DNA from: Saccoglossus kowalevskii
Lineage: Eukaryota > Hemichordata > Enteropneusta > Harrimaniidae
Direction of reading: 5' to 3'
Assembly (NCBI RefSeq): GCF_000003605.2
Contig: NW_003144806.1
Coordinates: 1-23,770, forward strand
Length of the DNA: 23,770 nucleotides
The first letter of the stretch is position 1. Each line of letters begins with the position of its first letter. Shown piece by piece: positions 12,574-22,168 of this stretch. A program made the position numbers and the translations under genes. The notes under the pieces were generated by a model. The model saw nothing but the letters and a program-made list of their open reading frames with translations. It was not told the DNA's origin and made no database searches.

Positions 12574-14087
12574 ATGAGTGAAGACCAGGGAAAGCTGCTT
12601 CAAGCTGTCACTAAATTACGTAACTTGATCGATCGCGGCAAACTGGTTCTTGTGATTGGGGAAGGGGCTTCTATTTTACCACAACCTGCCACAATTGATG
12701 ACTGGTGGACGCTGTTTCCCAACTTACAAAATGAGGTACATTCACATAAATAGTATAGGTACATTTACGAGTATTTGGTAGATGTCCCTTATATACATAA
12801 ACAAATCAATACAATATAATAGCGGCGAAAACAATGCACTTCTCGTTTGGAAATGATTGGATACATAATTCAGTTAGTGCTGCTCGAGTTTCCTTCATAC
12901 ATCTAAAATAGAATGTACTTGGTTCTGCAGTTAATCTGCAGTTAATCTACACACATTTGGATTTTTACTTGCAAGTTTATGACAAGAATATGTCTTCACA
13001 TCTTCTGCTACTTGACAAATTCAGGAAGTGTCACATATCCTAGATTTCATAACTCCCGGGGTACATCACATGCCCAAGCGGGGTACTATGGAGTGAGGTA
13101 ATATGATTTAACGCTGACAAATGCAGCGGTTAAACTAATTTGTATCTGTGTTATAACAGTACAACAGAATGATTGTAACAATGCTTAGATTTTGTTTGAT
13201 ATATGCGACTATATATATTTTTATAATTGCATAATAACTGTAATTTGTTATTCCTCAGAATGTTGCAGACATCCTTATTACAAAAGAACAATCCTACCTC
13301 GGCAAGCAGCAACATGGTCAATCTAGATTCCACAGTGTTCTTCGAGCTTTGGGTAAATTCCCACTAATCATTACCACTAACCTTGATGAACTTTTAGAAC
13401 GCTTTCTCTGGAACAATGGTACGGACGGAGAAAAAATGTGCTTGAATCAGGTAATGTACCTAACAACTTGTAATGTTGAAAATATTAATCTGTCCATCTA
13501 AAAGCATCTAATAACAAATTATATATAGACCTTACAATTATTTGATTAGAATATCTTTCCGATATATTGCAGATTGCGAAGCTGAAAAATTGTTGGTCAA
13601 ATTATCATCGTGGCTTCATTGTTAAATGTTTTGGTGACTCAGGATTTCAGACAAGAGCATCTGTAAGTATATACAGACCGTGATAGCCACATTTATTTAT
13701 TGTTTTATGTAAGATACTTATTTTAAAATCGAATTGTCTATACGTTTAATTCTGATTGACTAATATTTTATATTAATTTATTGAGATGTGAACTGATGTA
13801 TACATTTCTGGTTTATTGATTACGTGATATAATAGCGCATATGAGTTTTAAACAAACTTTCAACTTCTCTATTTTTTAATATAATAAGCGAATATAAATC
13901 ACACGATTCTATTCCGTAGGAATCACATAAAGAATACTTCTACTCATTGTGTGAAAAGCAGAGCTGCGATGAAAACAGTAAATTTATCCGTCAATTATTC
14001 GACGAATGCAGTGTTCTTTTTCTCGGTGTTGACGCAGACCACCCGCTTTATCAGCGTTTTATTAACAAGTTTGCCGTTTCCGCTAAG
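12574..14087 (+). CDS. Exons 1-4: SIR2-like NAD-binding domain
   Basis: Residues 1-204 follow the SIR2_2/STALD-type Rossmann pattern. [13 protein letters not shown] (residues 25-36) is the first strand and the Gly-x-Gly-x-Ser nucleotide loop. [15 protein letters not shown] (88-102) carries the conserved TTN-x-D motif. FIVKCFGD (133-140) is the strand and loop where the family usually has Lys-x-His-Gly. [17 protein letters not shown] (180-196) matches the late strand leading to an Asp. The 43-residue spacing between the Asn of TTN and the KCFG site fits the family. Relatives include bacterial ThsA-type NADases and eukaryotic FAM118 and SIRal proteins. The usual catalytic His position is Phe138, so NAD cleavage by the standard mechanism is doubtful and NAD or nucleotide binding is the safer prediction. 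Distinct from classical zinc-containing sirtuins: no Cys-x-x-Cys pairs. Confidence 0.75.
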
Positions 14088-20000: not shown

Positions 20001-22168
20001 TTCATATAATAATATAATTATTCTGTTAGACCACATGCAGTTAAACTTTCTGTTCTAAACTCATCACAGGAGAGCTATTTCCACCGAATATATTCGTCAC
20101 TCACAATCATTCGGATCATGCTGCTGAGCTTCCACTAGGATTGACTCTGTTTGCTGCAAAGTTACTGGAAGTTCAAAAGGGTATAAGGATTAGCATTTTG
20201 GCGGGACCGGAAGTAATCACAAAATTAAGAGATCACCGTATGGATGAAGTATACAGCGGAATATCAAAGGTAGCCGTCTTTTAAAATATATGATATCATG
20301 TATTTTGAAGACTAAATCATCCACGAGAAAATTGTATTGTATATTATATTGTATATGTAGCCAGGTGGTTCCAGAACTACTTTGAACAAACTCCGGTTGG
20401 GCCTATAACTACCTCGCTTGACTCGACGTTTATGCGCCAAATATTTACAGCACAATACAACAGCGTGATATAATGTTTTTTTCTTTAATTATGTACATTG
20501 ATTGCATCGTCATGAAAAGTGGGCACACTTTCGTCGTTGTGACAACATTTAGTTGTTATAACAACGGGGAACCTGTCATCTATCGATCACGAAAATTAGC
20601 ATATTACGATAAAATCGTTACTAGCTAGCCCTAATTAATTGCCAATTAACCTCACAGTCCTCCACTTACCGAGAAGGTCAAAATATTAGTAGCCATTGAA
20701 GAAGTATAGTAGTAGGGTACCAAGGCTAATATGTAAGTGGCCGTGACCTAGGATTAATGCCTTTTGATTTATTTTTTAGAAACAACTTGAATCGTTTGTT
20801 CAGTGGACAGAATGCCGTGAAGCTGACCGCGTCTATTTAGACAGTGACAAAGTATATTGTCTTCAAACATTCAAGAGTCAACATTCAGAAACATGTTATG
20901 GTAAGAGACATTTCATAGCGAGTTTTTTATTGAATTGTTCCCCTGACGTACACAGCATGGCACTTCGCTACACTATGACATAGCCATCGTCAGTAGGAGG
21001 GCGCCGGGTTTGATATTCTGTTCTAAATAGTAACATATTTTTGTGCATTTACAGGTTTTCTTCTGTATTCCAATGGTATTCCTATTCTTGGTTACACTGC
21101 GGATTCTGGTTATAACGAAGCATTATATGGGAATATATTTAGTGCCACTACAGTTATTATTGATGCACGAATAAATGGCAACGCTGAACATGCTTCGGTA
21201 TGTTGAGTATGTTTACTTACATTATAAGATGTATTCACCCACACGGTCAAATATCAAAATTCCTTTGTTTTAAACTATTACATTAATTACGATGACTGTG
21301 TAACAAAGTTGGCAGATGTAGAATGGTGATAACTAATTATATTGACGGCGACACTGAATACATAAAATATGGGACTTCAAGAACTGACCAATCCCAGTAA
21401 TTTCGACTAAAGTTTAAAGTGTCTGAAATTAACGCCAACATTTTAGCGTCTTGAAAACCAGAGAAATCATATGTTTTAACATGTGTGTAAAATCTACATG
21501 TGTGTAATCCTACTTATAATTTGTCAAATGATATTTATTATTTTGTTCTACAGCATGTGTTGCGTAGATCGTATAAGGCGTCAGATCCTTATAGCGATTG
21601 TTGTACGTGTTTCCAATAGTAGATCTAGCTGAGCAATATATATTCTTTTAAATTACTTGCTCGTCTTCTCTCAATTTCCGGTAGAAATAACTATTTTAAT
21701 GATTTTATTAATTGCAGTTTGATGAAATAATTGCATATACAGAAAAAATACAGGTTGGTAACATAGTATAATATTCAGAAATTATGTTTTAGCTGCGAAT
21801 ACCGCCATGACCTCCATTCTTATCTTTATGTAGCGGTGTAGAATCTTTGAATAAATTTATTATACGGCTAATGATAAATGACAACAAGGTAACTGCATAA
21901 TACCGCGTCACCGCCATATCATGTAACTATTGTTTCCGGGGCAATAAAGCACGCATTTATTTTGCAGGAGAAAAAGAAATATCTGATCAGCGGATATGGT
22001 ACACCAGAAGAGTGGCCGCAAAGGAAGGACATGTCTCATTTAAAGCAAATGCACCAGGGCGCCGCGTATGCGCTATGGCCTTTCGATAAATGGGACGAAG
22101 AAATCCGTGGTTCTGATAAATTGGCGCCTGAATTTCAGAGATACAAAAAGGTTGAAGACGCAATATAG
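12574..22168 (+). CDS. SIR2-like / protein kinase / metallo-beta-lactamase fusion protein
   Basis: The model has twenty coding exons: 12574-12735, 13259-13450, 13573-13662, 13920-14087, 14653-14814, 15183-15369, 15637-15707, 15908-16162, 16488-16744, 16807-17033, 17173-17416, 17509-17677, 17877-17980, 18060-18264, 19291-19401, 20070-20269, 20780-20900, 21055-21197, 21718-21753 and 21968-22168. All introns are GT..AG. Splice phases agree at every join except that exon 8 enters in phase 0 and must leave in phase 1 but is one base short, breaking the frame unless a downstream acceptor is used. The product is about 1,101 residues: SIR2-like domain (about 10-200), an unassigned region (205-515), a protein kinase (about 540-800) and a metallo-beta-lactamase domain (about 820-1085). 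There is no signal peptide or membrane segment, so the protein is probably cytosolic or nuclear. I know of no described protein with this order. The Met at 12574 is provisional. Confidence 0.85.
14653..16744 (+). CDS. Exons 5-9: unassigned central region
   Basis: Residues 205-515 lie between the SIR2-like and kinase domains, on exons 14653-14814, 15183-15369, 15637-15707, 15908-16162 and 16488-16744. The segment is mostly helical in character, rich in Gln, Lys and Glu. Two parts look like folded core. One is the join of exons 7 and 8, reading [21 protein letters not shown], a helix followed by a strand. The other is exon 9, which has [16 protein letters not shown] and a Trp-containing helix. 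I recognise no family. Exon 8 contains the frame break described separately. The region could bind a ligand or partner and link the enzymatic parts. Confidence 0.65.
16163..16487. other. Intron 8 of the fusion gene
   Basis: AT-rich intron of 325 bases with a clear GTACAT donor and TTGTAG acceptor. Nothing else is visible in it. The other larger introns of this gene (12736-13258, 14088-14652, 14815-15182, 19402-20069, 20270-20779 and 21198-21717) likewise show no second gene or clear mobile element. Confidence 0.6.
16807..18230 (+). CDS. Exons 10-14: protein kinase domain
   Basis: All hallmarks of an active eukaryotic protein kinase are visible. They are the glycine loop GKGQFGEVY (546-554), the ATP-anchoring Lys567 in YALKVL, the helix-C Glu586 in RREVDTL, HPNI, the catalytic loop HRDVKAEN (663-670), DFG (684-686), the activation segment ending MAPE (707-710), DIYSYG (724-729) and the C-lobe Arg in KRPSM (788). 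It should phosphorylate Ser/Thr, since the catalytic loop has Lys two residues after Asp665. The activation segment [14 protein letters not shown] contains several possible phosphorylation sites. Group assignment is uncertain; the loop and C-lobe look TKL- or NEK-like. The activation segment and catalytic loop are separated by a short 92-base intron. Confidence 0.92.
18060..18264 (+). CDS. Exon 14: kinase C-lobe joined to metallo-beta-lactamase start
   Basis: This single 205-nt exon encodes the last kinase helices ([20 protein letters not shown]), a linker of about 20 residues rich in Asp, Asn and Gly, and then the first strand of the metallo-beta-lactamase domain ([13 protein letters not shown]). 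It leaves in phase 1, matching exon 15. Because both domains share one uninterrupted exon, their fusion is read directly from the genome and does not depend on choosing splice sites. Confidence 0.88.
18377..18418. repeat. 21-bp perfect tandem duplicate
   Basis: Two identical 21-bp copies of a unit starting ATAACTAATAATATTTAGCC lie at 18377-18397 and 18398-18418, just before the AT microsatellite. It is probably a slippage product. Confidence 0.95.
18435..18530. repeat. AT dinucleotide microsatellite
   Basis: An uninterrupted AT run of about 96 bases (48 units) in intron 14. Its purity implies ongoing length variation. It can form cruciform structures and is a likely site of assembly error. 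Confidence 0.98.
18637..18690 (+). mobile_element. Possible tRNA-derived SINE head
   Basis: The sequence GTGTAGTGGTTAACC resembles the pol III A box of many tRNA-derived SINEs. It is followed about 30 bases later by GCGATCGAG and AATCCCA, which resembles a B box with a small insertion. The element body and tail cannot be delimited. It lies in intron 14 in the sense orientation. The evidence is a weak motif match only. Confidence 0.3.
19291..22168 (+). CDS. Exons 15-20: metallo-beta-lactamase fold hydrolase domain
   Basis: Residues about 820-1085 follow the RNase Z/arylsulfatase branch of the metallo-beta-lactamase superfamily. LGTGKGTT and [19 protein letters not shown] form the opening strands and first Asp-x-Gly. 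[13 protein letters not shown] carries the HxHxDH metal motif (His880, His882, Asp884, His885). His970 in QHSETCYGF is the third-motif ligand. Asp992 in GYTADSGY is the bridging Asp. His1021 in AEHAS is the last ligand. All expected ligands are present, so a two-metal hydrolase acting on a phosphodiester, lactone or thioester is plausible. The substrate cannot be read from sequence. The last 70 residues include [14 protein letters not shown] and a Trp-rich end before TAG at 22166-22168. A 36-nt microexon (21718-21753) lies near the end. Confidence 0.88.

What the first reader, a model, noticed from the sequence alone, without database searches (positions are those of the whole stretch)
12574..22168. 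A single animal gene fusing SIR2-like, protein kinase and metallo-beta-lactamase domains
Seen: exon motifs for all three domains in one strand-consistent, phase-consistent 20-exon model, and kinase plus metallo-beta-lactamase in the same exon. Known: each domain type occurs in bacterial defence or signalling, and SIR2-like domains act as NADase effectors there. Inference: the order suggests sensor or nucleotide binding, then phosphorylation, then hydrolysis, all in cis. I know of no described protein with this architecture, so it is the best candidate here for an undescribed system.
Basis: partly seen in the sequence, partly recalled or inferred. Interest (0 to 1): 0.88.

Follow-up and report, generated by a model that had tools for sequence, protein, structure and literature searches.

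The report
Animal kinase fused to bacterial-type phosphodiesterase
An animal gene joins a working-looking protein kinase to a metal-dependent hydrolase whose closest relatives found are in bacteria, behind a SIR2-like domain that has probably lost its enzyme activity; whether all three parts are made as one protein is still open, because the reading frame does not join cleanly at one place.

Summary
The domains are real. The 20-exon model (1,102 aa) hits Pkinase (3.6e-50), SIR2_2 (5.6e-9) and Lactamase_B (7.6e-6) above cut-off. Kinase end and MBL start share one exon, so that fusion needs no splice prediction. Three corrections. (1) The model is not cleanly phase-consistent: exon 7's strong donor puts exon 8 out of frame and stops translation after 393 aa; frame holds only with a donor scoring below the 18 others, or if exon 7 is skipped. 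SIR2-to-kinase continuity is unproven. (2) The SIR2 domain has Phe where the KomC NADase has His146, so it is probably no active NADase. (3) The MBL belongs to an apparently rare subfamily: 38-40% identity, E down to 1e-51, to stand-alone proteins of Salinisphaera and Thiomicrorhabdus; a relative's modelled fold is nearest Apyc1 cyclic-nucleotide phosphodiesterase, narrowly. Metal ligands and kinase motifs are intact. Best reading: a regulatory kinase with an acquired bacterial-type nucleotide-hydrolysing domain and a SIR2-like pseudoenzyme as sensor or scaffold. No animal orthologues or transcripts could be searched. Similarity to the MADS defence kinase is non-specific.

The parts
12574..14814 (+). 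SIR2-like domain, exons 1-5 (12574-12735, 13259-13450, 13573-13662, 13920-14087, 14653-14814), aa 1-258
   Evidence: PF13289 SIR2_2 E 5.6e-9, aa 90-215; FAM118B E 8.6e-4, KomC alignment
13630..13632 (+). Phe codon (aa 138) at the place of the SIR2_2 catalytic His
   Evidence: KomC IIKFHGD against IVKCFGD here; the KomC(H146N) chain has Asn at that place; His needed in FAM118B/A (PMC12700824 passages)
15183..16744 (+). Middle region, exons 6-9 (15183-15369, 15637-15707 or -15711, 15908-16162, 16488-16744), about 260 aa, no known family
   Evidence: no match in PADLOC, Pfam, PDB sequences, NCBIfam or PHROGs
15637..15960 (+). Exon 7/8 junction where frames do not join with the strong donor
   Evidence: donor scores 10.72 against -0.47; stop after aa 393 with the strong donor, in frame if exon 7 is skipped
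16807..18182 (+). Protein kinase domain, exons 10-14 (16807-17033, 17173-17416, 17509-17677, 17877-17980, first part of 18060-18264); Pfam match aa 543-795
   Evidence: PF00069 E 3.6e-50; ALK lysine, HRDVKAEN and DFG read directly from the translation
18060..18264 (+). Exon 14: one open exon carrying kinase subdomain XI and the first strand of the MBL domain
   Evidence: translation; MBL start aligned with bacterial proteins
18213..22168 (+). Metallo-beta-lactamase fold domain, end of exon 14 and exons 15-20 (19291-19401, 20070-20269, 20780-20900, 21055-21197, 21718-21753, 21968-22168), aa 816-1102
   Evidence: PF00753 E 7.6e-6; Salinisphaera and Thiomicrorhabdus relatives E 1e-51 to 9e-41; conserved metal ligands

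Best explanation
This is a real, apparently single-copy animal gene for a regulatory Ser/Thr-type kinase fused at its C terminus to a class II phosphodiesterase-like MBL domain of bacterial type. A SIR2_2 domain that has lost the catalytic His sits at the N terminus of the most likely full-length product. Shown: the three domains, the kinase-MBL fusion within one exon, intact kinase motifs, intact metal ligands, the missing SIR2 His, and the bacterial subfamily of the MBL. Inferred: the SIR2-like domain and the uncharacterised middle region bind a nucleotide ligand (NAD or a derivative) and/or self-assemble, and this switches the kinase. The MBL domain hydrolyses a small nucleotide, most likely a cyclic mononucleotide or related phosphodiester, and so limits the signal in the same polypeptide. 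Also inferred: the MBL domain came from bacteria by horizontal transfer and was fused to an existing kinase.
Confidence: 0.42

Rival explanations
1. Two genes, or one gene with a lesion: SIR2 plus part of the middle region ends in exon 8, and the kinase-MBL part is separate or no longer translated from the SIR2 start. The break is a true frameshift or an assembly error.
For: Exon 7's strong donor (10.72) leads to a stop after 393 aa; the frame-keeping donor scores -0.47. The contig is short, 23,770 bases of a 572 Mb assembly in 4830 contigs.
Against: The other 18 junctions fit and the other exons are open in the frame used. Exon 8 is open to its end in the downstream frame, and skipping exon 7 gives an intact 1,077-aa frame. 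Codon use does not single out one frame for the start of exon 8.
Confidence: 0.3
2. Active NADase effector: the SIR2 domain degrades NAD as in Thoeris, DSR2 or KomC, with kinase and MBL as regulators.
For: SIR2_2 family membership; the Asn of TTN is kept.
Against: The catalytic His is Phe here; H206A in FAM118B or H191A in FAM118A prevents NAD processing (PMC12700824 passages).
Confidence: 0.06
3. The MBL domain is an RNA-processing enzyme of RNase Z type, and the protein is an RNA-linked kinase.
Against: Far below the RNase Z cut-off (36.5 of 252 bits); Apyc1 chains are on top by fold; the subfamily was found in 1 of 398 genomes, the centre itself, unlike a housekeeping tRNase.
Confidence: 0.15

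Closest known systems
Apyc1 / YhfI class II phosphodiesterases (MBL fold; 7u2s, 7u2r, 7t28, 6kns, 1zkp)
   Different: only 16-19% identity between these and the bacterial relative; here fused to a kinase in an animal; substrate unknown
FAM118B and FAM118A, vertebrate SIR2_2 proteins
   Same: SIR2_2 family, FAM118B the best solved relative (8.6e-4); TTN Asn kept
   Different: catalytic His replaced by Phe; carries kinase and MBL; FAM118 proteins form filaments and process NAD (PMC12700824: start of abstract, passages, sections 7-8)
KomC SIR2 NADase (8zsf)
   Same: alignment through the active-site region
   Different: E 0.06 only; His146 is Phe here
Stand-alone MBL proteins of Salinisphaera and Thiomicrorhabdus
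   Same: 38-40% identity over 234-256 residues, all metal ligands
   Different: not fused; followed in 6 of 6 loci by a membrane-type protein gene
NEK-, RAF- and STE20-type kinases
   Same: kinase core; after 6npy_B (7.7e-29, labelled as an interferon-induced kinase), the next PDB chains are NEK7 at 2e-27
   Different: no close paralogue; best other kinases found in the genome 35-36% over part
SAMD9 family, animal proteins with a variant Sir2 domain
   Same: another multidomain animal protein with an unusual Sir2 domain (PMC5445408, search listing and start of abstract only)
   Different: no comparison made here

Membership tests
SIR2_2 domain family (Pfam PF13289) | profile score over the curated cut-off | tested here: met
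   36.7 bits against 24.5
SIR2_2 active NADases (ThsA, KomC, FAM118) | catalytic His in the HG motif | tested here: not met
   Phe aligned with KomC His146; HMMER's FAM118B alignment puts a gap near this place, so the KomC alignment is the basis
SIR2_2 active NADases (ThsA, KomC, FAM118) | Asn of the TTN motif | tested here: met
   TTNLDELLE against TTNYDRWIE in KomC
Eukaryotic-type protein kinases (PF00069) | profile cut-off and catalytic Lys, HRD, DFG | tested here: met
   171.2 bits against 31.7; motifs read from the translation
MADS defence kinase Mad6 | specific match to the Mad6 model beyond that of other kinases | tested here: not met
   202.4 bits here; 195.5, 247 and 212.1 for three other kinases of the genome
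MBL-fold hydrolases | profile cut-off and HxHxDH plus distal His, Asp, His | tested here: met
   Lactamase_B 26.4 bits against 22.7; Lactamase_B_2 21.6 against 27, not over; invariant columns
Cyclic-nucleotide-degrading phosphodiesterase (NF041851) | curated equivalog cut-off | tested here: not met
   32.6 of 400 bits
Ribonuclease Z (NF000801, TIGR02651) | curated equivalog cut-off | tested here: not met
   36.5 of 252 and 29.4 of 292.95 bits
Apyc1-like class II phosphodiesterases | hydrolysis of cyclic nucleotides | not testable with these tools
   fold only, and on the bacterial relative

The most novel reading that the evidence does not exclude
One animal protein unites a ligand sensor made from a dead SIR2 NADase, a kinase that passes the signal on, and a phosphodiesterase acquired from bacteria that destroys the activating nucleotide: a self-limiting nucleotide immune switch in a single chain, built in part from bacterial material.
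Probability: 0.12. Interest if true: 0.9.

Novelty: new variant of a known kind. Interest (0 to 1): 0.55.

Why it matters
If expressed as modelled, it would be a kinase with a nucleotide-hydrolysing domain in cis. It would also be a case of an animal taking a bacterial class II phosphodiesterase-like domain into a signalling protein, and would show a SIR2_2 domain kept without its catalytic His. It gives directly testable questions: which nucleotide, which kinase target, and which taxa.

Tried and rejected
Bacterial defence kinase origin: the Mad6 match looked strong, but three other kinases of the same genome (three fragments taken from the eight loci looked at) match as well; rejected. The SIR2 part has one weak PADLOC match, E 0.012. 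Plasmids with kinase plus MBL as query: 708 records match, none with 80% of the query; the 30 listed end by query residue 307 of 560, so they cover the kinase and at most about the first 34 residues of the MBL piece. SIR2 plus middle region: no match in plasmids or in 395 genomes of one phylum (which itself warns that an empty answer shows nothing). SIR2 part alone: no pattern match in viral contigs. MBL: none in plasmids or viral contigs; in phages four weak matches, E 0.2-0.3; one PHROG family, 'metal-dependent hydrolase', E 2.8e-10. The Pfam SIR2_2 search of the own genome found nothing, not even this locus, presumably because introns split the domain, so it says nothing on paralogues. Other acceptors for exon 8 were looked for by eye between about 15883 and 15956 in the sequence; none keeps the frame with the strong exon 7 donor. 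Four upstream + strand frames were put to Pfam: three have no match (9642-9884, 11769-12014, 12246-12509), one a match below cut-off (8797-9042, DUF6698, E 0.13). No RNA family in the window. Other low-scoring SIR2 hits in PDB (E 0.2 or more) are taken as chance. I did not try to fold the spliced animal protein, since the structure tool asks for proteins that the DNA gives letter for letter.

Full report
Observation. The window is contig C3586 (its match runs 1-23770; contig length 23,770) of a 572 Mb assembly. The same assembly holds a contig (C4830) with mitochondrial genes that read through under an invertebrate mitochondrial code. On the + strand I rebuilt a 20-exon chain from 12574 to 22168 with GT-AG introns. 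Joined so that the frame holds, it gives 1,102 residues. Pfam finds SIR2_2 (aa 90-215, E 5.6e-9), Pkinase (aa 543-795, E 3.6e-50) and Lactamase_B (aa 837-907, E 7.6e-6), each above its cut-off. These matches lie outside the disputed junction.

Fusion of kinase and MBL. Exon 14 (18060-18264) is open from end to end and reads from kinase subdomain XI into the first MBL strand. Six bacterial proteins align with that strand and on through exons 15-20. This part of the finding is firm as far as DNA can show it.

The weak joint. Exon 7 has the best-scoring donor of the gene (CAG|GTATGT, 10.72, against 0.74 to 8.54 for the 18 others scored by leave-one-out), and with it translation stops after aa 393 in exon 8. 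The donor that keeps frame (TAT|GTGTTC) scores -0.47, and 66% of the 1410 GTs in the window score as well. Skipping exon 7 also keeps frame, giving 1,077 residues. Codon use did not settle which frame the first bases of exon 8 belong to; the best split lies only three bases in and is little better than the downstream frame throughout (29.0 against 27.3). To my eye the frame that follows the strong donor ([14 protein letters not shown]) reads like helix and strand, but that is a judgement, not a test. The possibilities are an assembly error, a true lesion, a poor donor, or an exon whose inclusion makes a short SIR2-only form. The coding start may also lie upstream, since an in-frame acceptor-like AG precedes the ATG.

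SIR2 domain. The nearest solved sequences are FAM118B (E 8.6e-4) and, weakly, KomC (E 0.06). In the KomC alignment IIKFHGD faces IVKCFGD: the His that is mutated in deposited KomC chains is Phe here (aa 138, 13630-13632), while the Asn of TTN is kept. HMMER's FAM118B alignment has a gap at this place, so it does not decide. In FAM118B and A, mutation of this His or Asn prevents NAD processing (PMC12700824; passages and sections 7 and 8 seen). I therefore expect no NADase activity, with ligand binding or assembly possible.

Kinase. The lysine of [14 protein letters not shown] and DFG are present in the translation. The best PDB chains are 6npy_B (7.7e-29) and then NEK7 chains (2e-27). Other kinases found in the own genome match at 75 bits or less. 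The strong match to the MADS Mad6 model (202 bits) is equalled by three other kinases of the genome (195, 247, 212 bits), so it carries no weight.

Middle region. About 260 residues between SIR2 and kinase match nothing in PADLOC, Pfam, PDB sequences, NCBIfam or PHROGs.

Surroundings. I found no second copy with the SIR2, MBL or middle part; these searches score only the best candidates. On the other strand, upstream, two hand-joined exons of a second gene hold a death domain (Pfam E 1.4e-5, above cut-off), in head-to-head arrangement. This hints at an immune or cell-death neighbourhood but is weak evidence.

Mechanism. I think most likely that the SIR2-like part and middle region sense a nucleotide or assemble, that the kinase is the output, and that the MBL domain hydrolyses a nucleotide and so limits the signal. 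The domain facts are shown; the order of events, ligand and substrate are inferred.

Novelty. I found no paper with this architecture in the listings of five searches of an open-licence library; the listings of 26, 45 and 77 were capped, and the listed papers were not opened apart from PMC12700824. No collection of animal proteins was at hand, so absence elsewhere is not shown. I rate it a new variant of a known kind: known domains, one of them of bacterial type, in an order I cannot find described.

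Noticed in passing
window 1828-7715, minus strand: A second multi-exon gene, head to head with the finding; two hand-joined exons hold a Pfam Death domain (E 1.4e-5). Other exons tested gave no match (1831-2493) or one far below cut-off (Sirohm_synth_C, E 0.22).
   Followed up: partly
L017-L022, directly downstream of the MBL gene (e.g. L022:6743-7375): In 6 of 6 loci the bacterial MBL gene is followed by a gene for a membrane-type protein (204-211 aa in five, 145 aa in L018; 45-48% identity to that of Thiomicrorhabdus), with no Pfam match (two of six tested). 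By eye its end resembles a channel pore region with a degenerate filter.
   Followed up: partly
L016 (C4830:12023-16363): Mitochondrial contig with cox1 on the opposite strand to nad1 and cox2 (nad1 and cox2 named by eye).
   Followed up: no
L035, L036, L041, L043: Proteins of about 570-590 aa from Clostridiales and Lachnospiraceae carrying an MBL part at the N terminus and an unexamined C-terminal half.
   Followed up: no
window 1-300, 2664-2855, 22230-23260, 18434-18530, 23294-23400: Tandem or direct repeats and two long TA runs, seen by eye in the sequence; no repeat tool was run.
   Followed up: no
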